From positions 1 through 32,248 of IMG/VR virus record IMGVR_UViG_3300023174_000440: 32,248 bases of DNA. One strand, 5' to 3'. The notes under the pieces were generated by a model. The model had not been told where the DNA came from. It did not search any database and saw nothing but the letters and a program-made list of their open reading frames with translations. The position numbers and the translations under genes are program-made. The DNA is from a virus. Below are positions 10,437 to 27,763 of this stretch, piece by piece. Each line of letters begins with the position of its first letter. Within the stretch, counting starts at the first letter, position 1.

Positions 10437-11294
10437 TTAGGTTCCCCATTCGTTTTTAAATAATGGCACTTGAAGTCGGTCACTGTACCGCCATCCTTCT
10501 CGCATTGCCATTTCTGCCACACGCCTATTATTAAGACTGTACACCCGCTCAACGCCACCGACAGGCATAATATACACAGGGCCTTTAAAGCCATTATTTC
10601 TATATTGTTTGACTGCTTGTTGAGCATCTGTTAAGTCCTCTTCGCTTGCTATGACAAATTTCAAGTAGGTATAGCCAACTTTTTCATAGTCGCATACCAC
10701 TTCGGGAAGGATAGCTTCCTCCCATTTTTCCCCACTCACTGGCAGTTTAGCACTAACACTGAACGTGACTTCCCTTTGTCGTGAATGCCGGTCACTCCAG
10801 TTAATTAAGTAATTTTTAAATTCTGGAGTTAATTTCTGAGTGCCGTTAGTTTCAAAAGTTAAGTGACGCAATCTTATCATCGACTCTTCATCTAGCAGTT
10901 CAGGATAGCTACGTTGCCAGCCTAGCAAGGGTTCTCCCCCTGTAATAACAAGATGCTCATCATGCCAATTTTTATGTGGCAATAAGTCTACTATACCTTT
11001 GGCCAAAGCACTTACTTCATATAAGGGGCTAAGATGTTTAAAGTTAGGATCCCAACTAGCATAGCTATCACAGCCAGTACTTACCAGTGGTAAGTCTTTG
11101 TAGCTTTTAAACGGCCGTTCTTCATCAGTTAATGCTACATTTACTCTTTCTATGCTTTTTTCACCACGTGGCATACCAAAACCATCGCAGGTAAAGTTGC
11201 AACCAAAAGTACGTAAGAAAATAGAAGGCACGCCCATATAGCGTCCTTCCCCTTGTATTGAATAAAATAGTTCGCTGATTTTAATCTTGCTCAT
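10437..11294 (-). CDS. queE: 7-carboxy-7-deazaguanine synthase QueE (radical SAM)
   Basis: Converts 6-carboxytetrahydropterin to 7-carboxy-7-deazaguanine (CDG). Numbered from the ATG at 11294: 'FYSIQGEG' at 10-17 is the QueE N-terminal motif, and 'FLRTFGCNFTC' ends at Cys36. The third iron-sulfur Cys is not in the usual place; 'GFGMPRG' follows and the next Cys is at 75 in 'TGCDSYASWD', which aligns with the canonical C-D-T-x-Y. GGEPL is at 119-123. A longer reading frame uses TTG at 11324; ATG is preferred because it begins right at the conserved domain. It overlaps mazG by 14 bases. FolE, a QueD-like protein and DpdA are encoded nearby. Confidence 0.9.
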   Translation of the reverse strand: MSKIKISELFYSIQGEGRYMGVPSIFLRTFGCNFTCDGFGMPRGEKSIERVNVALTDEERPFKSYKDLPLVSTGCDSYASWDPNFKHLSPLYEVSALAKGIVDLLPHKNWHDEHLVITGGEPLLGWQRSYPELLDEESMIRLRHLTFETNGTQKLTPEFKNYLINWSDRHSRQREVTFSVSAKLPVSGEKWEEAILPEVVCDYEKVGYTYLKFVIASEEDLTDAQQAVKQYRNNGFKGPVYIMPVGGVERVYSLNNRRVAEMAMREGWRYSDRLQVPLFKNEWGT

Positions 11295-11559
11295 ATATGG
11301 TAGACCATTGTTTAAGTTTTTCAAATTTAGCTAGTTTAGCCTTTTCAATATTATATTGACTAATTACTCCATTCATTTCTAATAGGGTAATCATGGCAGC
11401 CAAATCTCCCAGCTCTTCTTCTAAGTGTTGACGATTAGTTTTGAGCTCTCCAGGTTTTCGATTATCCATACCAAAGCGATTAATCTTGCTCACTGCTTGG
11501 ATAACTTCTGCACATTCCTCTTGGAGGATGCTCATTACTTCATTTATTGAGTCTTTCAC
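11281..11559 (-). CDS. mazG: MazG-like nucleotide pyrophosphohydrolase
   Basis: A 92-residue single-domain MazG. 'EECAEVIQAVSKINRFG' (residues 14-30) and 'EEELGDLAAMI' (48-58) supply the EExxE...ExxD metal site that hydrolyses (d)NTPs to monophosphates. In phages MazG is proposed to shift nucleotide pools or alarmone levels; here it may also feed dNMP metabolism. The start is GTG with a strong AGAGGAG 8 bases upstream, overlapping the previous gene by 20 bases. It is translationally linked to queE. Confidence 0.85.
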   Translation of the reverse strand: MKDSINEVMSILQEECAEVIQAVSKINRFGMDNRKPGELKTNRQHLEEELGDLAAMITLLEMNGVISQYNIEKAKLAKFEKLKQWSTIYEQD

Positions 11560-12339: not shown

Positions 12340-13035
12340 TTATCTTGGTGCAAAGTCTTGTTGGAGTTTAATGTTATCAAAAAACTCCTTCTTAGTGCCC
12401 ACGTCTTCTTTAAATGCACCTTTTAAGACTGTGGTTTGTGTGAGACTGGAATGTGCCATAATTCCGCGGTTTTCGCAACATCCATGAGTGGCCTGTATAT
12501 AAACACCAACGTTTTTACTATCAGTTGCTTTAGAAATCTCCCTAGCAATATCATTACATAGTTCTTCTTGGAGAGTGCCTCTCCGAGCACACCACTGAGC
12601 AATCCTTGTGTATTTTGACAAGCCAATGACTTTACCATTTGGAATAATTCCAATATAGGCAACACCATTAACTGGTTGATGATGATGACTGCACATACTA
12701 CGAAGTTCACTGCGTACTACCAACATGCCAGTATAAGCATCCTCGCCTTCATTTGGAAAGCTAGTAGCATCTGGTGCAGGCTCGTAACGCCCTGCCATGA
12801 TTTCGTTAAAGTACATTTTAGCCAATCGACGAGCAGTTCCCTTGCTATTAGGGTCATTTTCTCTGTCAATTAGTAATGAGTCGAGAACAGATTCAAATGC
12901 CTTAGTAGCATCGTTAATTAGTTCTTCTTTGAAGTTTTCTTCCACATAATCGGATATATTATCGCCTGCCCAGAATCTCTTACCTTCTCGGCGCATACGA
13001 TCACGCAATACTTGTGCTAGATTTTTTTCAGCCAT
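12340..13035 (-). CDS. folE: GTP cyclohydrolase I, FolE
   Basis: Converts GTP to dihydroneopterin triphosphate, the first step for both folate and 7-deazaguanine synthesis. Zinc ligands are in place: C115 and H118 in 'MCSHHHQP', and C186 in 'HGCCENRG'; 'GLSKYTRIAQWCARR' near 138-152 is the conserved substrate loop. At 231 residues it matches FolE1. AAGGAA lies 6 bases before the ATG, and a perfect-consensus promoter lies just upstream. With queE, a queD-like gene and dpdA in the window, a role in deazaguanine supply is likelier than folate alone, although thyX also consumes folate. Confidence 0.95.
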   Translation of the reverse strand: MAEKNLAQVLRDRMRREGKRFWAGDNISDYVEENFKEELINDATKAFESVLDSLLIDRENDPNSKGTARRLAKMYFNEIMAGRYEPAPDATSFPNEGEDAYTGMLVVRSELRSMCSHHHQPVNGVAYIGIIPNGKVIGLSKYTRIAQWCARRGTLQEELCNDIAREISKATDSKNVGVYIQATHGCCENRGIMAHSSLTQTTVLKGAFKEDVGTKKEFFDNIKLQQDFAPR

Positions 13036-16712: not shown

Positions 16713-17102
16713 TTAATATTTAACAAACGAACCATTCTCTCCGTCTTCGGAGACTTCAATCCAGACTTCACGGTCAGGATACTTTGCGTGAATGATGTCA
16801 TAAAGTTCATCTGACATCATTTCACAACTCTTGTAGTCAAGGGTCATAGTCCCTTGGGCAAATAGGTTTTCGAGCCAGCGTTTGAATTGGATAAATTCAA
16901 CGTCACGATCATTGTGGGTAACTGAAAGCCAAACACGAAAATGAAATATATGACGGTGAGGATTAGCAAGAAACGATACATCATATTCATCACCTGTGGC
17001 CAGTGTGGGATCTGTGGCGGCTGCCGGATAACAATGGATGCCTTCTTTACGGAAGGTCACCCAAATCATTTTATTGGGTCGAACGTCTTGTTTAATAATC
17101 AT
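16713..17102 (-). CDS. Divergent QueD/PTPS-like T-fold protein
   Basis: A 129-residue protein that aligns by eye with 6-carboxytetrahydropterin synthase QueD. H49-R-H51-I-F matches the zinc motif HGH-x-(F/Y), H23 may be the third ligand, 'TMTLDYKSCEMMSDELYDII' (85-104) matches the 'LDH...ENLA' region, and 'VWIEVSEDGENGSFVKY' the C-terminal E-T strand. However, the catalytic Cys before HGH is absent, LDH is LDY and ET is ED, so it may have altered chemistry or only bind pterin. It ends the dpdA operon and overlaps the nuclease gene by ATGA. Context with folE and queE supports a pterin role. Confidence 0.6.
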   Translation of the reverse strand: MIIKQDVRPNKMIWVTFRKEGIHCYPAAATDPTLATGDEYDVSFLANPHRHIFHFRVWLSVTHNDRDVEFIQFKRWLENLFAQGTMTLDYKSCEMMSDELYDIIHAKYPDREVWIEVSEDGENGSFVKY

Positions 17103-17650
17103 GCTGGTTCAAATAAGTTGTCAAAATGTGGATTTGCCATAGTTTTAATTTTTTCCATTGCGCCTACGGATATTCTAAATTGATAGCCACTATTTTTTGC
17201 TTCAAAATAGCCATAAGTAGTACCACTTACATAACCAGATTCACCGTTGATAATTTTTTGTCTTGATTCTTCGTAGGCTTCTTCTAATCTTTTTTGAATA
17301 TAATCTGATCTAAAATCATAGAGTTTTTGATCTGTGATAACACTATCCTTGTGATAAACATGATAATGTTGCTGAAGTTTATCTTTTATGGGAGAATTTT
17401 TATATGGAGTAGTTATAATATCTTCTCTAGTCATAGTTCCAATAGCCCAGGCTGAGGTGGAATCTACATCTTTAGACTTCATTTCTAAGTCATGATTAGG
17501 ATAATCTGGACCTTTGCCAGGTTGTACTGGCATGCCAATTTCTGCGTGAAGTTTTTCAATATGATGACCAGTAACTCCAGAGGTTCTATGGGGTACAGAT
17601 TTGCCAACAAGGCTTTTATTAATTTTAACGATTTTTGGTTTCATAGTCAT
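17099..17650 (-). CDS. PD-(D/E)XK nuclease, MvaI/BcnI-like
   Basis: A 183-residue protein. 'GHHIEKLHAEIGMPVQPGKG' (28-47) leads into P48-D49 and 'DLEMKSKD' with E56-x-K58. This gives the helix-then-PD-then-ExK order of restriction-type nucleases, resembling the MvaI/BcnI group. A basic C-terminal half with 'GTTYGYFEAKNSGYQF' follows. The start is the ATG at 17650, which overlaps the upstream stop by ATGA; the longer frame to 17680 would overlap by 34 bases. It lies inside the dpdA-queD run, so it may cut unmodified DNA such as the host chromosome. Target site and sensitivity to 7-deazaguanine are inference. Confidence 0.65.
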   Translation of the reverse strand: MTMKPKIVKINKSLVGKSVPHRTSGVTGHHIEKLHAEIGMPVQPGKGPDYPNHDLEMKSKDVDSTSAWAIGTMTREDIITTPYKNSPIKDKLQQHYHVYHKDSVITDQKLYDFRSDYIQKRLEEAYEESRQKIINGESGYVSGTTYGYFEAKNSGYQFRISVGAMEKIKTMANPHFDNLFEPA

Positions 17651-18150
17651 AGTGGTGTATCCTCGGTATATTCGTCCCAACCAGTAAAATTACTACGATC
17701 CATCAGGGAATGTAGACTATGTGACCACACACCAGGATTAGTATCACCCCAAGTTGTATCATCAATCTTCACAGTGGTGTTGTAATTGAACAGACCAATA
17801 TATGGCAGTTTCACACTGATCATGGGGATAAAATGATCGTTCTCGCACCATCCTTCTTCGTGAAAATCACGAGCATAGCTAACGTCAAAGTCTAAGGTTA
17901 CCCAATAGCCCAGTTCTAACAAGCCTTTGATCATATGATCCCACGACTTCCAATCTTCGTAAGTTTGTGGTGTGAAGCTTTGACTAGTGCCAAGATAGAT
18001 ATGACGGAGGTTATTGACCTTTAGTACAATTTCCTCTACGGGTTTAACGCCAACTACGAACAATGTGCGTTCACCTTTCATTGGGGTATGTTCAACTTCT
18101 ACGCCAATAAAGTAGTCTACGTTCTGTCTACCTTCTGTATCTATTGCCAT
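17647..18150 (-). CDS. Unknown protein of the dpdA operon
   Basis: A 167-residue protein starting 'MAIDTEGRQNVDYFIGVEVE'. AGAGG lies 9 bases before the ATG at 18150; the longer frame to 18213 would run deep into the dehydrogenase gene. It is alpha/beta in character with many aromatic and acidic residues: 'FVVGVKPVEEIVLKVNNLRH', 'YWVTLDFDVSYARDFHEEGW' and 'MISVKLPYIGLFNYNTTVKI'. I recall relatives in marine phages but no function. Tight coupling to the dehydrogenase before it and the nuclease after it makes it a likely part of the same pathway. Confidence 0.7.
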   Translation of the reverse strand: MAIDTEGRQNVDYFIGVEVEHTPMKGERTLFVVGVKPVEEIVLKVNNLRHIYLGTSQSFTPQTYEDWKSWDHMIKGLLELGYWVTLDFDVSYARDFHEEGWCENDHFIPMISVKLPYIGLFNYNTTVKIDDTTWGDTNPGVWSHSLHSLMDRSNFTGWDEYTEDTPL

Positions 18151-19043
18151 TCTATGTAACCTCTGCTGTAATTTTCTGGACGATCTGCGCCATCTTGGAA
18201 TGCTTGTTGCCATTCAGTGTCACGATTATAGCTTCTTGTCCAGAACTTGTCAACATCAAGTTTGCCATTTTCAATCATCCAAACAGCATCTCTCATACAT
18301 TGATGAAATTTAGAATTACGTGGACTAGGAAATACCATAGTAGTAGCTTTCCAAAGCATTTTATCAAAAGTAGTACTAACTGGCTGTGTTTTGGCAGCTG
18401 CCATAATGATTAAGGCACAATCTTTATATAAATCACTGTCAAGAATATCACTTCGGCTGCTCAAATCAATTATGACATCGTATTGATCATTAGTTGACGC
18501 TAATAATTTATCACCCCATATATCTTGATTGGAACGCCCTACTACATCGATATCAAATCGTAAATGATAATATTTAGTAATAGTATGATAGGCAACCCAA
18601 GCTAGAAATCCGCTGCCTAAGATTAGTAGTTTGCTATTTGGGCCTTGCCGCCATCGCAATTCTGATAATGCTTGGCTAACGATGTTAACTCCACAGGCCA
18701 CTGGCTCAATAATATAGCGTGGATGCGCTTCTGGTACGGTGACATATTCATGCTGTCGTACTGTATAACGATCAGCATAGGCAGGTTCGCCTCTGGTAGC
18801 AACATAGTCACCGACTCGTACATCAAAAATTGCTGAACCAACCTGTGTAACTCGGCCTAAACCTTCGTGGCCTTGCATGTTCAAAGGTAATGGGCCAAAG
18901 TTTCCCTGCATCATGTCAATGTCACTGCGACAAACACCAGTCATAATGCTTTTAACTTCGATTTCGTTAGGGCTAAGTGGTGGGCAAGCATATTCGCTTT
19001 CCACAAATTCGCCCTGTCCAGTAGTTACTAGTATTCTATTCAT
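18141..19043 (-). CDS. Zinc-type MDR (alcohol dehydrogenase-like) oxidoreductase
   Basis: A 300-residue medium-chain dehydrogenase. Catalytic-zinc residues are C38 in 'GVCRSD', H59-E60 in 'GHEGLG' and 'EPVACG' at 113-118. The NAD(P)-binding turn is 'LLILGSGFLAW' at 139-149. The four-Cys structural zinc loop of classical ADHs is missing, which explains the shorter length. Related host enzymes oxidise sugar or polyol alcohols. It overlaps the Gfo/Idh/MocA gene by ATGA and the next gene by 10 bases. MDR and Gfo domains also occur fused in some bacterial polysaccharide enzymes, so the pair may act on one substrate. Confidence 0.82.
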   Translation of the reverse strand: MNRILVTTGQGEFVESEYACPPLSPNEIEVKSIMTGVCRSDIDMMQGNFGPLPLNMQGHEGLGRVTQVGSAIFDVRVGDYVATRGEPAYADRYTVRQHEYVTVPEAHPRYIIEPVACGVNIVSQALSELRWRQGPNSKLLILGSGFLAWVAYHTITKYYHLRFDIDVVGRSNQDIWGDKLLASTNDQYDVIIDLSSRSDILDSDLYKDCALIIMAAAKTQPVSTTFDKMLWKATTMVFPSPRNSKFHQCMRDAVWMIENGKLDVDKFWTRSYNRDTEWQQAFQDGADRPENYSRGYIEWQ

Positions 19044-19933
19044 AGTTTCTCAATTTTTTTATGGATCCATTGATCTTGATAATGTTGGTCATTCCAAAAT
19101 TCCGTATCATCAATGTTGGCAATTGCCGTTTCAATCATTTTTTTGTAGGCACTTTCTGGGCAAAGTCCTAATGGTTTGGATATTTTTTTATCTCCATCTA
19201 ATACAAACTCGATTTGTATGTCATCTCCGTTTAGGCTACGCCAATCTGCTGTGAATGTCCACATAGTTTCTTCGCCTAGGAAGCCTAATCTACAGTAGTC
19301 ATCTACATTGTATACCCCTTGGTTGTTGACAACACCATAATTTGTGTTAGTAATATCAGTTAATTGCCAGCGTTGTCTAACATCTTTGCGTACACGATTA
19401 GCTTCGTCGTACTGGTTATCTAAGGCAATCCATAAACTGAGTAAATGTGGCATAAGATCACGACTAACTCCGCCAAACGCCAATTCTTTATTGGTAAACC
19501 AAGTACCTGGATTAGGTACACGATCATGATTAATCCAATTAACGTTGACAATTACGCTGGCAGCAGCAAGAGTTTGTAGTTCATCAATCTCATCACGATA
19601 TTGATTGTTCTTGACCATCATGATTCTTGTGGCGGGATTATTATCTACTAGTTTATCCCATGCATCTGCGGTGATTAATCCAGGTTTTTCTATAAAAACG
19701 ATCTTGGCTTTTGGTGCCACTATGTATGCAATACCTTCGTGAGTATAGTTAGGTGTACAAATATGCACAGTGTCGAACTGATCATAATCAGCCAGGGCTT
19801 CTTCTACGGTGGTATAATCTGTGTGTTTAGCAGGATCACTATCTACTGTTACAACAGTATGATCCATTTGTTCTAGCACAGTACGATATAGTTCGCCTAT
19901 GCCCATTCCTATGATAAGACTAAGTGGTTTCAT
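19040..19933 (-). CDS. Gfo/Idh/MocA-family oxidoreductase
   Basis: A 297-residue NAD(P)-dependent oxidoreductase. The N-terminal Rossmann turn is 'LIIGMGIGELY' (6-16), the family's E-K-P is at 82-84 ('IEKPGLIT'), and 'GGVSRDLMPHLLSL' at 154-167 matches the 'GG...D...H' catalytic block. The start is the ATG at 19933, inside the end of dpdA (14-base overlap). Substrates in the family are sugars, inositols and related cyclic polyols. Immediate coupling to dpdA on one side and the MDR dehydrogenase on the other is unusual for a phage and suggests a shared product. Confidence 0.85.
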   Translation of the reverse strand: MKPLSLIIGMGIGELYRTVLEQMDHTVVTVDSDPAKHTDYTTVEEALADYDQFDTVHICTPNYTHEGIAYIVAPKAKIVFIEKPGLITADAWDKLVDNNPATRIMMVKNNQYRDEIDELQTLAAASVIVNVNWINHDRVPNPGTWFTNKELAFGGVSRDLMPHLLSLWIALDNQYDEANRVRKDVRQRWQLTDITNTNYGVVNNQGVYNVDDYCRLGFLGEETMWTFTADWRSLNGDDIQIEFVLDGDKKISKPLGLCPESAYKKMIETAIANIDDTEFWNDQHYQDQWIHKKIEKL

Positions 19934-21467
19934 TGTTAAGTTGTTCAAGTTTAAGTGTTTCTTCTTCACTAAAATCTTCGGTATGATCTGATTCTATATT
20001 GTTTTCATTGACTTCGTCAAATAGAATGGAAAAGTGTGTGCTTGAGTTTACAGTTTTTTTGCCGACAGCGCCACGAGTACCAATAATGCTAGTCCAATAA
20101 CGGCTATATTCTTTGACCACTGCTTCAGCTATACCTTTGTCCGATGTTGCAAAAACGGCTTCTACAATGTCTTTAAAATATAAACGATCGAATTCTTCTT
20201 GTACTAACATGGCAGGAACTTTACCAGCATCATATTGCCTGTTAGCTTCTTGTACAGCATTACAGTGCATCCAAACATTATGCCCCATCATGATAGCATA
20301 ACTAAATGAATCCCATGATGTTTTTCCTTCCTTACCTATTTTATTTAGGTCACCGGGTTTATAAATGCAAATATCCTTGATCTGAACACCATCCATGACA
20401 GGACTAAGTTCAAAGGTTTTAAACAAGCTGTCTTGTATAACAGCATCACTATATAATCGAGTATCTGTAGCGTATTTTTTATCATCTACACCAGGCACCA
20501 TTCGATAAGTCCATTTATGTCTATCCTTGGTTTCTGTTTGAACATAAATTTGTCCGTTGGCTGTGGCTAAAAATGGACTGGCACAATCGAAACTAATAGT
20601 GAAATTTTCATTATGATATTTACGAACAGCACGTTGAATGTCTGTTAGTAAGGTGGCCCATTCTAATTTACTGGTTCCTAAAAAATGCATCCAGTCTTGA
20701 TGACCTTTTTCTAGTAATCCATCAAACCTCAGTGCAACTAGCCTTTTAAGAACCAAGTGGACATCACACATATTTTGCCCGCCCATGCCCCAACCGTTAA
20801 ATGCACGATCACCGTATTGTTTAGGGTCGCAATACTTTTTCATATGCTGATACCATCCTTCGGCGTCAGTATGATTTTCGCCTTGTAGTACATTTAAAAA
20901 TTTACAATTGCCATTTCGATTATTAATAAAATATTCATTGTTAATAAATGTACCTTGAACTGCTTCATTGTAGGTGCTAACACCTGTGGCTTTGGCACCA
21001 GCAGGGCTACGGGCAACCCATGCTGGGATATCCAACCCCATGCCATAGTCCATTAAACTGTCCATCCAAGTAAGAACTTGTTTGCGTTTTTTAGCAGCAG
21101 CCGGGCAATTAGGATTCTTCCAATCAGCGGGCCATACACCCTTGCCAATTTGAAAGCCTCCGGAATCGCCCAACACCCAACTGGTAGCACGATTCCTATT
21201 ACGGAACATGTCTTCACCCTCGTCTGGTTTATTAAGATCTAAGTTAGCATGTCCTGCTGAATACAAACAGTGATCATAATAAAATAGACCTTGATCAGGG
21301 TCTAAATAATTAAGACTTTCTACACCATTTTTAAAATTTACAGGAAGTCGTGCAGGGTCGACATAGTTACTATATCTTTGCTTGCCTATGAATGTACTAT
21401 AAAAACCAGATGTTGCCGGCAGAAACCATGCATAATCTTGTTGAGTTGCTGTTAAATTTTTATTCAT
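19920..21467 (-). CDS. dpdA: DpdA-like DNA (TGT-family) base transglycosylase
   Basis: A 515-residue member of the tRNA-guanine transglycosylase superfamily. 'GDSGGFQIGKG' at 100-110 matches the TGT base-binding motif with D101. 'DYGMGLDIPAW' (140-150), 'LNVLQGE' (191-197) and 'FNGWGMGG' (223-230) follow in the TGT order. 'SFDCASPF' at 292-299 gives the likely nucleophile D294. The usual tRNA-TGT zinc cluster C-x-C-x2-C is not seen. In phages such proteins (DpdA) exchange guanine in DNA for a 7-deazaguanine. It lies one base after the clamp gene, and folE, queE and a queD-like gene are in the window. Exact DpdA subgroup and product need testing. Confidence 0.85.
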   Translation of the reverse strand: MNKNLTATQQDYAWFLPATSGFYSTFIGKQRYSNYVDPARLPVNFKNGVESLNYLDPDQGLFYYDHCLYSAGHANLDLNKPDEGEDMFRNRNRATSWVLGDSGGFQIGKGVWPADWKNPNCPAAAKKRKQVLTWMDSLMDYGMGLDIPAWVARSPAGAKATGVSTYNEAVQGTFINNEYFINNRNGNCKFLNVLQGENHTDAEGWYQHMKKYCDPKQYGDRAFNGWGMGGQNMCDVHLVLKRLVALRFDGLLEKGHQDWMHFLGTSKLEWATLLTDIQRAVRKYHNENFTISFDCASPFLATANGQIYVQTETKDRHKWTYRMVPGVDDKKYATDTRLYSDAVIQDSLFKTFELSPVMDGVQIKDICIYKPGDLNKIGKEGKTSWDSFSYAIMMGHNVWMHCNAVQEANRQYDAGKVPAMLVQEEFDRLYFKDIVEAVFATSDKGIAEAVVKEYSRYWTSIIGTRGAVGKKTVNSSTHFSILFDEVNENNIESDHTEDFSEEETLKLEQLNNETT

Positions 21468-21468
21468 T

Positions 21469-22203
21469 TTATTTTAATTTGGGCGGAAGAATATAACTGT
21501 ATTCGCCTAGACCACTGTCAATGATAATTTGCATGGCGCCCTGGTCACTAATTTTCATTGTGCAGTCGCCGTTTAAATTTAGAATGGCTAAAACTTGCTG
21601 TACATCCCACGACCAAATATTTTTTAATTTTCCACCGGGGTTGCCTTGGAAAATAAAACTGCCAGTGTGACTACTTGCATCGCCGAAGCTAAAGACTAGA
21701 TTTTTATTTTCTACTTTAGCTTGAAATAATGGTTCACTACTATGAGCTTGAGCCTGTAATTTTAGTCGTTGAATGGAAACCACACTGGGATTGAATTCTA
21801 TATCCCAAGTAACTCCCTTGAATTTGAGGCTTTTAATTTTTTCATTGATAATTTCAGTACTAACAAATCTAAATTCATTACTAAAATCTCCACCTTCATT
21901 TGTGAAAGTAATGCTAGTAGGTACATCCTCGCCGTTTTGTTTAGTGGAATTTACTTCAATTAGAAAGTTTTCTTTGTATTCTGGACTTTTTAAAAGAAGA
22001 CTTAAGATGTCCAAGTTTCTCATACCAAATACTCCCTCCAATTCGGATACGGGATTTTTCATTTTGGCTTCAAGAACTACACTTTTATCATCAGCCATGC
22101 TTTCTAGTTTAGTTTCTGTGTCACTGCCAGTGACTTTGACCATTTCTAGAAAACCTAGTCCTTTGGTATGTGCTACGATGTCGGTTAAAATATCTTTAAT
22201 CAT
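21469..22203 (-). CDS. 45: Sliding clamp, gp45-like
   Basis: A 244-residue ring-clamp protein, similar in length to T4 gp45 (228). Support comes from position directly after DNA polymerase gp43, an all alpha/beta composition with repeated strands, and 'MRNLDILSLLLKSPEY' near 76-91, where gp45 has its 'LxGFLGILSL' segment. Start: ATG at 22203 with AAAGGAG 6 bases ahead; a longer frame lacks a ribosome site. The clamp tethers gp43 and, in T4, activates late transcription. A TCTAAATA sequence upstream may be a late-type promoter. Confidence 0.8.
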   Translation of the reverse strand: MIKDILTDIVAHTKGLGFLEMVKVTGSDTETKLESMADDKSVVLEAKMKNPVSELEGVFGMRNLDILSLLLKSPEYKENFLIEVNSTKQNGEDVPTSITFTNEGGDFSNEFRFVSTEIINEKIKSLKFKGVTWDIEFNPSVVSIQRLKLQAQAHSSEPLFQAKVENKNLVFSFGDASSHTGSFIFQGNPGGKLKNIWSWDVQQVLAILNLNGDCTMKISDQGAMQIIIDSGLGEYSYILPPKLK

Positions 22204-22244
22204 GTTTTCTCCTTTGTTAATTGTATTTAGAAAATAATAAAATG

Positions 22245-24917
22245 TCAACTTGAAAAGTCGAACAATCTGCTAAATGTGTTCGTTTCTTCGGTGCTGCTAA
22301 AATTCCAACCTAACACACCAATTAGGTTTTCCAATTTGTTATCAATGATAGTATTTTCCATGCCATCATGATCGAATGGCAGATCTTTAAACCATTGAGG
22401 CAATCTTAATTCGTCTACTGGATAGGCCACTGAAGTATATTCTAAAGGATTATTTTTTAGTTTACATACAACAACTTTGGCGCCATCAGTAATACCCATG
22501 GAATATTTGTCGCCATGCATACGCTTTAGAGTATTCCAATTTAGAGAAGCTCTGACATGTCCAGGAAGATTGGCCTTGCCTTGTTTAAGTTCTTTGTCGG
22601 CAAAATCTGTAATATTGTTTGCACGTCTGGGTGAACCTTTTTCCCAACCTGGTCTTACTTTGAATTCAGTTCTAAAATCGTTAATATAATCTATAACTTC
22701 TTTTTGTTCATGTCCGGTTAGAACCATTTCCAAGACTTTACTCAAAAAGTCTTGAATAAATTCTGGAGTGTCACTACGTTTCAAATCTAATCCCATGGCC
22801 TTAATTTTGCCAGGTTTGTCATCTTTGTCGGTACGTTTGCCTTCTTTGTCATAGTATAATACAGCATAACGCTTTTTGGTAATGAACAGTCCTTTGGTAG
22901 CTACCAGTTCCCTTCCTGCCTTAATAACTTCCCCACGACTTTTTGGACAATGAAAAGAATCCAGCATAAATTGAGCAAAAGTGCTGTTAACTTCGTCAGC
23001 AATTTGATCATATAAGATTATGACATTGTCCTTGCTCCATGGTATAGTGCCTTTGTCGATTTCCTTTTTTAGAGTTTTATATGCGCTAAAGTATGCACTG
23101 TCAGTGTCGCCATATATAATAGCCTTGCCTACGTGATCATATTGTCCTGTGATGATTTCATTTACCTTAGCAGCCATGTGCTTGGCAATTTGTCTGCCTG
23201 TAAGGGTGGTTGATTGACCAATACGCTTATCAAAAAAGCGACAACCAGGATTAAGAATAGCACCGTAGAGACTGTTGAGGTTAATTTTCTTAACCAATTG
23301 GCGTTTATCCCAATACTCTTCTTCAATTTTGTTACCAGCATTTATGGCCTCCCTTAGTTTGGCCTGCATTTCTTTACGTTCACTGTACCAGCGTTTTAAC
23401 AGGCCTGGAATAACTCCTTCTTTTTCATAAGTAAAAATTGTACCATTAGCACTCAACATCCAAGGCTGATTGCTGTCAAAAATTAGTTTATATGTTTCAG
23501 CAGCACTGACCACATTGGTTTCGCCATTTTCCCAGTCAATGACAATTTCAGTGCCGATCTCTTTGTTCATTACTGCTTCGTATTCTAATGAACCAAACTG
23601 CCCTTCCCAAGCACCAGCAAAACTTTTCTTACTTGAGGTCATTTGATTTTCAATGTATTCGTCAGTGAGTATGGGCCGTAATTGTCCTATAATAGTTTCA
23701 GGGCCCATGTTAAGAGCTCTAATAGCACTTGGGTATAGACTGTTAATGTCTACGGAGCCGATCCAGTCATGAATGCCTCCTTTGGGATGAGCAACATAGG
23801 CACCTGCTGCCGCAGTATCGTCGCGTTCACTCATCTTGGTTCTATTGGGCACAATGAACCCTCTACGATGTGCTTCATTGATAATGGCCTGTTCAGTAAC
23901 AGCCACAGCACCCATAGTAGTTTGTAGTAGCACAGTATTTTCATGTGCTAGTGTATTGGCTAGGTCGATAAATTTAAGTTTTTTATCTAGCTTGTCTAAC
24001 AAGGCGCAGTCTTGACGATTATATTCAATGAATGTTTTAAAGTCATTGTTATACAGTTGATCTAATGTGCCTTCGTAGACAGTTTTACGTTCGCCAATCT
24101 CCATTTCACCAATAGCATCTAGTCTGTAAGTATGACGTTCTTCATAAGTGTAACGTCGATAAAGTTCAAGACTGTCTAAGTGTACACGCCCTACTAGGTC
24201 ATATGTTACTGCTTTTTTGCCGTATTTTTCATATTCACGACGTTTGGGATATTGTCCCCATAGACAAAATCGTCTAGTATCATCTTTGCTTAGTGCTTTA
24301 GTTACACGATTAACAGTATAAGGGATATCATAACCTTCACTGTTCCAACCAGTTAGTAGGTCAGCATCTTCAATTAAGTTTAGGAATGTGTCCAACATAT
24401 CTGCTTCGTTGTCGAAGATATGTGTATTGGGAAAATCTTTAACAAGTTCCTGTGCTTGGTCAACACTCATGCCTTTGGGTGGCACTGCCAAACAAACTAG
24501 TGTATCTAGCCATTGTAAATGTACACTGATAGCAGTGATAGGCATAAAGGCATCATCTGGACTTGCATATCCACGTTCTGGATCAAAGTCTACTTCAATG
24601 TCGAAAAATGCCACGTTAAGTTTGGGCACTTCGGCGTTGAGATAGTTATCACTCAAACAGACAAATATTTGGTTAATATCTGCTTCGTAGATACGTTTAT
24701 TTGAGTGTATTTTTAGTTCTTTGTGGAAATCTTTTTGTGTTTTAGAAGTCAATCTAGAAACAGATGTGCCATATATACTAGTATGTTTGCCCTTGGGGTC
24801 TTCATAATAAAACACAAACCGCCCGGGAATATCTCTATATTCTCTCTTACCATCGCGGTTACGTTCCACAACCCTGACAACATCATTGTCACGGTCGAAA
24901 TAAGCATCGACGTACAT
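22245..24917 (-). CDS. 43: DNA polymerase gp43, family B
   Basis: An 890-residue replicative polymerase with proofreading. Exonuclease motifs: 'FFDIE' near 104-108, 'GWNSEGYDIPY' near 190, 'YNRQDCALLD' near 298. Polymerase motifs: A 'DINSLYPSAI' near 389, B 'KKINLNSLYG' near 541, C 'YGDTDSAYF' near 602, and 'TKKRYAV' further on. All catalytic acids are present and the gene is not split or interrupted by an intein or intron. The start is the ATG at 24917 with AGGAG 5 bases ahead; a TTG 10 codons upstream is a less likely alternative. The clamp gene follows after a 41-base gap. Confidence 0.97.
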   Translation of the reverse strand: MYVDAYFDRDNDVVRVVERNRDGKREYRDIPGRFVFYYEDPKGKHTSIYGTSVSRLTSKTQKDFHKELKIHSNKRIYEADINQIFVCLSDNYLNAEVPKLNVAFFDIEVDFDPERGYASPDDAFMPITAISVHLQWLDTLVCLAVPPKGMSVDQAQELVKDFPNTHIFDNEADMLDTFLNLIEDADLLTGWNSEGYDIPYTVNRVTKALSKDDTRRFCLWGQYPKRREYEKYGKKAVTYDLVGRVHLDSLELYRRYTYEERHTYRLDAIGEMEIGERKTVYEGTLDQLYNNDFKTFIEYNRQDCALLDKLDKKLKFIDLANTLAHENTVLLQTTMGAVAVTEQAIINEAHRRGFIVPNRTKMSERDDTAAAGAYVAHPKGGIHDWIGSVDINSLYPSAIRALNMGPETIIGQLRPILTDEYIENQMTSSKKSFAGAWEGQFGSLEYEAVMNKEIGTEIVIDWENGETNVVSAAETYKLIFDSNQPWMLSANGTIFTYEKEGVIPGLLKRWYSERKEMQAKLREAINAGNKIEEEYWDKRQLVKKINLNSLYGAILNPGCRFFDKRIGQSTTLTGRQIAKHMAAKVNEIITGQYDHVGKAIIYGDTDSAYFSAYKTLKKEIDKGTIPWSKDNVIILYDQIADEVNSTFAQFMLDSFHCPKSRGEVIKAGRELVATKGLFITKKRYAVLYYDKEGKRTDKDDKPGKIKAMGLDLKRSDTPEFIQDFLSKVLEMVLTGHEQKEVIDYINDFRTEFKVRPGWEKGSPRRANNITDFADKELKQGKANLPGHVRASLNWNTLKRMHGDKYSMGITDGAKVVVCKLKNNPLEYTSVAYPVDELRLPQWFKDLPFDHDGMENTIIDNKLENLIGVLGWNFSSTEETNTFSRLFDFSS

Positions 24918-26788: not shown

Positions 26789-27763
26789 CTATATCCCAAA
26801 ATCTTTCATTAGGGCTCTAGCAATACGACCAAAACTTTCTCTTATAGGCGGCAGCCCAGTCTTAGGATCAAACCCGTGTTTTATCATCATGCTAATCCAT
26901 GATGGATCACCTAAACCCATATTTCCCCTACCAGGTATTACATTCCATGCTGTACCAAGAGCAAGCATTTCTGAAGCTTCCGTACCTTTTTGAATAGCAC
27001 GAACAGCGTCCCACGCATCTTGAGTTGACTGAGTAAATATGCCATCAATCGGGACTTTTTGTCCGTTTTTGTTTAACCAATATTGTAAAGCTATTGTTCC
27101 TGGATTTTTATAACCATTTTTAAATGGCTTGTCCCCGGGCTTTGGTTTAACTCCAGGCTTTGGTTTAACCTTATAGGGTGTTACTCCATAATCTGAATCA
27201 TTAGGTGGTTCGTATCCATCTTTAACTAATGCTTCATAGGTATGGGATCCAATTTTACCATCGACTACTAGTTTTTGTCCTGGTACACGTGGATCATCTC
27301 TGCCTTTTTGGAAAGCCATGATTTCGGCTCGTGTAGTAGGCCATTTTTTCTTTACCCTAGGATTAGGTGGATCAACTACAACATCATCTGGTTTCGGTGG
27401 TTCTGGTTTCGGTGGCTCTGGTTTCGGTGGCTCTGGTTTCGGTGGCTCTGGCTTTGGTGGTTCTGGTTTCGGTGGTTCTGGTTTCGGTGGTTCTGGTTTC
27501 GGTGGCTCAACTACAACATTGTCTGGTTTAGGTGGTTGTGGAGGAACGTCAGCTGGACCGTATTTAACATTATAAATATCACCAAAACGACTACGTATCA
27601 CAGTACCATCATCACTGATGGCAGCACTTAGAATCTTCTGTCCATTTCGAGGATCGATATCGCCTATGCGTAACGGCGGAAACTTTTCAAAATTAGCAGG
27701 ATCATCAGGGTCACCTATTTCGTCTAATCTACGAAGTTTGTCTAATATAGTTTTAATTTCCAT
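26789..27763 (-). CDS. Proline-repeat protein with two PG-binding-like motifs
   Basis: A 324-residue protein. It starts 'MEIKTILDKLRRLDE' (L-D-E leader end). Residues ~80-130 are a tandem Glu-Pro-Pro-Lys-Pro repeat, a stiff extended linker. Then come 'VDGKIGSHTYEALVKDG' (~165-182) and 'VPIDGIFTQSTQDAWDAV' (~237-254), both like peptidoglycan-binding repeats. The C terminus 'ARALMKDFGI' resembles that of the 715-residue neighbour. AAGGAT lies 7 bases before the ATG. Likely a virion protein with an envelope-binding part; location is inferred from leader and context. Confidence 0.7.
   Translation of the reverse strand: MEIKTILDKLRRLDEIGDPDDPANFEKFPPLRIGDIDPRNGQKILSAAISDDGTVIRSRFGDIYNVKYGPADVPPQPPKPDNVVVEPPKPEPPKPEPPKPEPPKPEPPKPEPPKPEPPKPEPPKPDDVVVDPPNPRVKKKWPTTRAEIMAFQKGRDDPRVPGQKLVVDGKIGSHTYEALVKDGYEPPNDSDYGVTPYKVKPKPGVKPKPGDKPFKNGYKNPGTIALQYWLNKNGQKVPIDGIFTQSTQDAWDAVRAIQKGTEASEMLALGTAWNVIPGRGNMGLGDPSWISMMIKHGFDPKTGLPPIRESFGRIARALMKDFGI
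27390..27509 (-). repeat. 15-base tandem repeat, eight copies, coding for EPPKP
   Basis: Eight adjacent 15-base units (plus-strand consensus GGTTTCGGTGGTTCT) lie inside the 324-residue gene. They differ at only a few third-codon positions and encode the Pro-rich linker. Copy number probably varies by slippage. It is not a CRISPR, as there are no spacers. Confidence 0.9.

What the first reader, a model, noticed from the sequence alone, without database searches (positions are those of the whole stretch)
17099..17650. Restriction-like nuclease embedded in the DNA-modification operon
PD at 48-49 and ExK at 56-58 after a helix rich in His and Glu resemble MvaI/BcnI-type nucleases. Next to a base-modification pathway, this could act like a phage-carried restriction-modification pair: modified phage DNA is spared and host or rival phage DNA is degraded.
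Basis: partly seen in the sequence, partly recalled or inferred. Interest (0 to 1): 0.75.

Follow-up and report, generated by a model that had tools for sequence, protein, structure and literature searches.

The report
MutH-like nuclease in phage modification operon
A virus of bacteria that appears to carry guanine-altering genes also carries, between two of them, a small DNA-cutting enzyme of the MutH/restriction-enzyme type; it probably cuts ordinary DNA while the virus's own altered DNA is spared, but that last step has not been shown.

Summary
In detail: a 183-aa ORF (17099-17650, minus strand) has P48-D49 and E56-x-K58, and it is a real gene: relatives lie in 54 IMG/VR contigs, under strong purifying selection. 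A predicted structure (pLDDT 83) matches MutH best (Z 14.5), then Sau3AI (11.4), MvaI (9.3) and BcnI (9.1), well above other nucleases (7 or less). The MutH catalytic set E56/D70/E77/K79/K116 aligns with E32/D49/E56/K58/K91. So 'restriction-like nuclease' is right; MutH/Sau3AI is a better label than MvaI/BcnI. The operon encodes a predicted guanine transglycosylase (TGT fold, Z 20), QueE, FolE and a QueD paralogue. All relatives found sit in one slot just upstream of the QueD paralogue; other related phages have that slot empty or filled by HNH, GIY-YIG or oxygenase genes. Fifteen long related records hold no DNA methyltransferase above its family cut-off and no MutS, and the window does not avoid GATC or CCWGG. 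Best reading: an orphan nuclease that attacks unmodified DNA while deazaguanine protects the phage, like T4 endonuclease II but with another fold and base. Homing is the main rival. The nuclease is not co-inherited with the transglycosylase, so a dedicated restriction-modification pair is unproven.

The parts
17099..17650 (-). MutH/Sau3AI/MvaI-type PD-(D/E)XK nuclease, 183 aa
17555..17557 (-). codon of E32, equivalent of MutH E56
   Evidence: coordinates by arithmetic from the ATG
17504..17506 (-). codon of D49, equivalent of MutH D70; invariant in 27 relatives
17477..17485 (-). codons of E56-M57-K58, equivalent of MutH E77-x-K79
17378..17380 (-). codon of K91, equivalent of MutH K116; invariant in 27 relatives
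17647..18150 (-). gene directly upstream, unknown function, 167 aa from the MAIDTEG start (first-listed ORF 17647-18213); one wall of the slot
16713..17102 (-). QueD paralogue, 129 aa, three invariant His (H23, H49, H51) read by eye as a QueD-like metal site; possible CDG decarboxylase (DpdL-like); other wall of the slot
   Evidence: canonical QueD is a separate gene in most long related records; no profile hit to PTPS structures
19920..21467 (-). guanine transglycosylase (DpdA-like), TGT fold, DSGGFQ motif
10437..11324 (-). QueE-like 7-carboxy-7-deazaguanine synthase
12340..13035 (-). FolE-like GTP cyclohydrolase I
18141..19043 (-). zinc-dependent alcohol-dehydrogenase-like protein, upstream in the operon
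19040..19969 (-). Gfo/Idh-type oxidoreductase-like protein, upstream in the operon

Best explanation
It is an orphan, sequence-specific DNA endonuclease (nickase or two-step cutter) of the MutH/Sau3AI/MvaI/BcnI fold, made from the phage's deazaguanine operon. It most likely cuts or nicks guanine-containing target sites in unmodified DNA, that is host chromosome, plasmids or rival phages. The phage's own DNA is spared because the DpdA-like transglycosylase replaces guanines by a 7-deazaguanine (probably 7-carboxy-7-deazaguanine or plain 7-deazaguanine, as QueC is not found), removing or crowding the N7 contact in the major groove that such enzymes read. Shown here by computation: gene, fold, catalytic residues, conservation, slot, operon content, no methyltransferase or MutS found. 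Inferred: DNA rather than tRNA as the modification target, identity of the base, the recognition site, selectivity for unmodified DNA, and whether the victim is host or rival.
For: Fold and active site: MutH Z 14.5, Sau3AI 11.4, MvaI 9.3, BcnI 9.1, next unrelated 7.0; Foldseek top five hits are all MutH, E 3.8e-5 to 2.2e-4; E32/D49/E56/K58/K91 align with MutH E56/D70/E77/K79/K116 and are conserved. Kept for function: dN/dS about 0.05-0.13 in unsaturated pairs. Always in the deazaguanine locus: 54 contigs, 51 with both slot walls, 3 with one, none elsewhere, transglycosylase in the fetched stretch of 49; one copy per long record and none in the 7 long records with no nuclease in the slot. No Dam-type or C5 methyltransferase in 15 long records and only one partial N6/N4 match under the cut-off, so nothing else is known to protect the phage. 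No site avoidance: GATC 132 observed/113 expected, CCWGG 39/44, CCGG 25/25, lowest palindrome TGCA 0.61. Precedents: 7-deazaguanine in phage DNA blocks many restriction enzymes (PMC5567051, PMC6884629); T4 nucleases degrade non-modified host DNA early in infection (PMC11404850); chlorovirus-packaged restriction enzymes are thought to degrade host DNA (PMC7019647).
Against: Nuclease distances do not follow transglycosylase distances (rho 0.07, permutation p 0.14, 32 loci), and it occurs with both transglycosylase types (32 and 17 contigs). Only 10 of 78 related loci that hold the slot carry it, so it is dispensable. The slot also takes non-nuclease genes. Lack of site avoidance is also expected for a long or unknown site or a nuclease regulated by a partner. 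No cutting data; no proof that the base is in DNA.
Confidence: 0.5

Rival explanations
1. A free-standing homing-type endonuclease: it cuts the empty junction between the upstream gene and the QueD paralogue in co-infecting relatives and is copied in by recombination, spreading itself (or excluding rival alleles) with little use to the phage otherwise.
For: Presence/absence in one exact slot, with empty sites joined by the same ATGA overlap; very low correlation with neighbours, i.e. frequent exchange; the same slot in other phages holds HNH, GIY-YIG/NUMOD3 and T5orf172-like genes, typical of mobile nucleases; an HNH-looking gene next to a duplicated queD 3' end in L001 shows invasion nearby.
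Against: Strong purifying selection with almost no broken copies (one reported in-frame TAA in G007); short overlaps with both neighbours, an operon-like fit; fold of the short-site MutH/restriction group rather than a usual homing fold; the slot also takes oxygenases and small non-nuclease genes, so it is a general exchange site.
Confidence: 0.27
2. A MutH-like nickase for phage DNA metabolism (mismatch correction, recombination or packaging), directed by strand state, for example newly made strands not yet carrying deazaguanine, as MutH uses hemimethylated GATC.
For: Best structural match is MutH; post-replicative transglycosylation would give hemimodified DNA (established logic of DpdA).
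Against: No MutS in 15 long related records, no Dam-type methylase, and the gene is absent from most relatives, unlike a core repair gene.
Confidence: 0.12
3. A modification-dependent nuclease that attacks DNA carrying a different 7-deazaguanine, i.e. rival phages of the same environment with another base.
For: Alleles of the slot differ greatly between otherwise near-identical stretches (window and L002: direct neighbours 93-98%, nuclease 64%), as expected for a competition locus.
Against: The same nuclease clade is found with both transglycosylase types; no modified-base reader domain is present beyond the catalytic fold.
Confidence: 0.06

Closest known systems
MutH (Pfam PF02976; E. coli MutH)
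   Same: Fold (Z 14.5 over 167 residues) and catalytic residues E56/D70/E77/K79/K116
   Different: 13% identity; no MutS and no Dam-type methylase in the related records; the window protein itself does not reach the Pfam model
Sau3AI (MutH-type restriction endonuclease)
   Same: Fold (Z 11.4 and 9.9)
   Different: Sau3AI is a two-domain enzyme with a cognate methyltransferase (own knowledge); here one domain and no methyltransferase found
MvaI / BcnI (PF15515)
   Same: Fold (Z 9.3, 9.1); those enzymes are monomers that cut one strand after the other (PMC4081073)
   Different: Weaker match than MutH; one weak Pfam hit (0.054) in 27 members; no companion methyltransferase found; about 60 residues shorter
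Phage T4 endonuclease II with hydroxymethylcytosine DNA
   Same: Functional parallel: virus-coded nuclease and unusual base; unmodified host DNA is degraded (PMC11404850 for the T4 nucleases; endonuclease II's role from own knowledge)
   Different: GIY-YIG fold and cytosine modification; here MutH fold and guanine modification
Chlorovirus restriction-modification pairs
   Same: Virus-coded restriction enzyme thought to degrade host DNA while viral DNA is protected (PMC7019647)
   Different: Protection there is by an adjacent cognate methyltransferase; here by a presumed base replacement; eukaryotic host

Membership tests
MutH/Sau3AI/MvaI/BcnI group of PD-(D/E)XK nucleases | Group fold | tested here: met
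   Top VIA-align rows are MutH, Sau3AI, MvaI, BcnI, Z 14.5-7.9, next group 7.0
MutH/Sau3AI/MvaI/BcnI group of PD-(D/E)XK nucleases | E...D...ExK active site plus downstream Lys | tested here: met
   E32, D49, E56, K58, K91 conserved and aligned to MutH
MutH (PF02976) in the strict sense | Profile match above the curated cut-off | tested here: not met
   No hit of the window protein or of the window record; 7 of 27 relatives hit weakly, best 2.9e-4
MutH (PF02976) in the strict sense | Works with MutS and a Dam methylase | tested here: not met
   No MutS_V and no MethyltransfD12 in 15 long related records, controls positive; MutL not tested; host proteins could serve; records may be incomplete
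MvaI/BcnI (PF15515) | Profile match | tested here: not met
   1 of 27 relatives at E 0.054; window none
MvaI/BcnI (PF15515) | Cleavage of CCWGG or CCSGG | not testable with these tools
   needs purified protein
Type II restriction-modification system | Adjacent cognate DNA methyltransferase | tested here: not met
   PF02086 and PF00145 absent, PF01555 one partial match under cut-off, in 15 long records; a base-exchange enzyme may stand in
Homing endonuclease | Present/absent at one exact site with clean empty sites in relatives | tested here: met
Homing endonuclease | Cuts the empty site and is inherited with bias | not testable with these tools
   needs mixed infection and cleavage assay
Homing endonuclease | Belongs to a known homing fold (LAGLIDADG, HNH, GIY-YIG, His-Cys, Vsr-like) | tested here: inconclusive
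   Best matches are MutH/restriction folds; unlisted folds are not excluded
Phage 7-deazaguanine DNA modification (DpdA) locus | TGT-fold transglycosylase plus FolE/QueD/QueE genes | tested here: met
   TGT fold Z 20; QueE, FolE; separate PTPS in 10 of 16 related records, not tested to be in the window's own genome
Phage 7-deazaguanine DNA modification (DpdA) locus | 7-deazaguanine present in virion DNA | not testable with these tools
   needs mass spectrometry

The most novel reading that the evidence does not exclude
Phages with deazaguanine DNA keep a dedicated exchange slot inside the modification operon for nucleases of unrelated folds (MutH-type, GIY-YIG/T5orf172, HNH), each acting on guanine-containing DNA only: a methyltransferase-free restriction system in which replacement of the base is the immunity and the nuclease allele is a swappable weapon against host and rival phages.
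Probability: 0.3. Interest if true: 0.78.

Novelty: new variant of a known kind. Interest (0 to 1): 0.56.

Why it matters
If it discriminates as proposed, it is a restriction system whose immunity is base replacement rather than methylation, carried by phages. It would give the deazaguanine pathway an offensive role beside its known defensive one, and natural enzymes for telling guanine from 7-deazaguanine. It makes a clean question testable: whether hypermodified phages commonly pair their base with a matching nuclease, as T4 does.

Tried and rejected
Single-sequence searches of Pfam, PHROGs, NCBIfam, PDB and the phage collection gave no usable hit; another phage tblastn with a relative also none. 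The profile searches of PDB sequences gave only chance hits, and hhalign to MutH alone has low probability (2.3%) although it places all five catalytic residues; the fold comparison carries the assignment. A genome-contig scan found no bacterial relative, but it rested on two short patterns, so bacterial relatives are not excluded. A search for an avoided palindrome that could reveal the recognition site found none. Co-inheritance of nuclease and transglycosylase was tested and not found. BFVD's S-CAM7 structural hit could not be recovered by profile search in one S-CAM7 genome (a search without a positive control), so its context is unknown. The QueD-paralogue and upstream-gene profiles match no solved structure. 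I first called the 129-aa neighbour plain QueD; canonical PTPS genes elsewhere in related records make it a paralogue. The gaps of about 500 bp printed for some 'empty' loci come from the wrong reading frame of the upstream gene; those read in the right frame mostly show the 4-bp overlap.

Full report
The gene. It overlaps the stop of the gene before it and the start of the gene after it by ATGA. The window is a 32,248-base IMG/VR virus record; its DNA polymerase resembles those of large phages at 42-50% identity.

Relatives. Single-sequence searches find only three close relatives in IMG/VR, but the neighbours lead to many loci of the same layout, and searches with these add more. In all, 54 contigs carry the gene. 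In 51 it lies between the same upstream gene and the same QueD paralogue; in three only one wall was found, two of these at a contig end; none is elsewhere. The transglycosylase lies in the fetched stretch of 49. Long records have one copy, and the seven long records with no nuclease in the slot have none. No relative was found in bacterial genomes or named phages, with limited sensitivity.

Fold and active site. A model from 15 relatives (pLDDT 83.3, pTM 0.79) matches MutH (Z 14.5, 167 residues, rmsd 3.1), Sau3AI (11.4 and 9.9), MvaI (9.3) and BcnI (9.1); other restriction folds follow at 7.0 and below. Foldseek also ranks MutH first. MutH E56, D70, E77, K79 and K116 align with E32, D49, E56, K58 and K91, which are invariant or at least 90% conserved in 27 relatives. 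In one divergent clade (L065) E56 is Asp. Pfam MutH is hit weakly by 7 of 27 members, MvaI_BcnI by one. It is a member of the MutH/Sau3AI/MvaI/BcnI group by fold and active site, not a typical MutH and not specifically MvaI/BcnI.

Selection. Pairwise dN/dS where dS is not saturated is roughly 0.05-0.13, near that of the neighbours. The ORFs recovered were full length except at contig ends. One profile match, in G007, was reported with an in-frame TAA, which I did not resolve.

Operon. The 515-aa protein has a TGT fold (model pLDDT 86.4, Z 20 to tRNA-guanine transglycosylase) and the DSGGFQ motif, so it is DpdA-like. QueE and FolE are supported by profiles. The 129-aa protein has three invariant histidines that I read as QueD-like, without a profile hit; canonical PTPS is a separate gene in 10 of 16 related records, and QueC is missing apart from partial hits in one. 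This suggests 7-carboxy-7-deazaguanine or 7-deazaguanine as the final base, an inference that also leans on my memory of published phage enzymes (DpdL). That the base is put into DNA and not tRNA is inferred from related phage systems (PMC6884629).

Slot. Of 78 loci with the slot found through the QueD paralogue, 10 carry this nuclease, 4 a T5orf172-like gene (assignment weak), one GIY-YIG, one HNH, 3 oxygenases, many small unknown genes, and 25 are empty. These 80 loci were ranked by similarity to the window's QueD paralogue, so the fractions are not a random sample. The nuclease distances are nearly independent of the neighbours (rho 0.04-0.18) and of the transglycosylase (0.07, p 0.14). Window and L002 share neighbours at 90-98% but the nuclease at 64% and the transglycosylase at 69%. 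So the gene is exchanged within a fixed slot. Homologous recombination through conserved flanks could by itself explain the fixed position.

What protects the phage. No D12 or C5 methyltransferase appears in 15 long related records (8 with and 7 without the nuclease); one N6/N4 match is partial and under the cut-off. No MutS appears. The window does not avoid GATC, CCWGG, CCGG or any other short palindrome strongly. A short-site nuclease of this group would therefore need another protector, and the base modification is the only candidate seen; 7-deazaguanine in phage DNA is known to block many restriction enzymes (PMC5567051, PMC6884629).

Judgement. The most likely mechanism is selective attack on unmodified DNA (about 0.5). 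Homing is the strongest rival (0.27), because presence/absence at one site, exchange and company of HNH and GIY-YIG genes fit it well; selection, operon fit and fold speak against. A repair nickase and a modification-dependent nuclease are less likely. The parallel with T4 endonuclease II and chlorovirus restriction enzymes makes this a new variant of a known kind.

Noticed in passing
L001:6309-6998 and L070:6933-6989: Downstream of the QueD paralogue a segment of about 1 kb ends in a second copy of its last 19-23 codons; in L001 the segment contains an HNH-looking gene (by eye, no Pfam hit). Looks like homing-type invasion of the 3' end.
   Followed up: partly
L023:4489-5001, L055:3940-4485, L057:923-1432, L077:4488-4991: A family of 168-182 aa proteins in the same slot, weakly T5orf172-like (E 0.037 in one member), possibly GIY-YIG nucleases.
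   Followed up: partly
L015, L029, L054 (slot upstream of the QueD paralogue): 2OG-Fe(II) oxygenase-like genes occupy the slot; they might further modify the base or other targets.
   Followed up: no
17647-18150: The gene between dehydrogenase and nuclease is conserved in most of these loci, with invariant E18/E20, H50, D130/D131, and matches no known family or solved structure.
   Followed up: partly
window 18141-22248 against L002: Mosaic: clamp 61% and transglycosylase 69% identical, while the genes between transglycosylase and nuclease are 90-93% identical.
   Followed up: partly
L121/L123:6527-6901: The QueD paralogue next to a typical nuclease is replaced by a divergent version (44% identical to the window's).
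   Followed up: no
26789-27763: ORF with a run of PPKPEPPKPE repeats.
   Followed up: no
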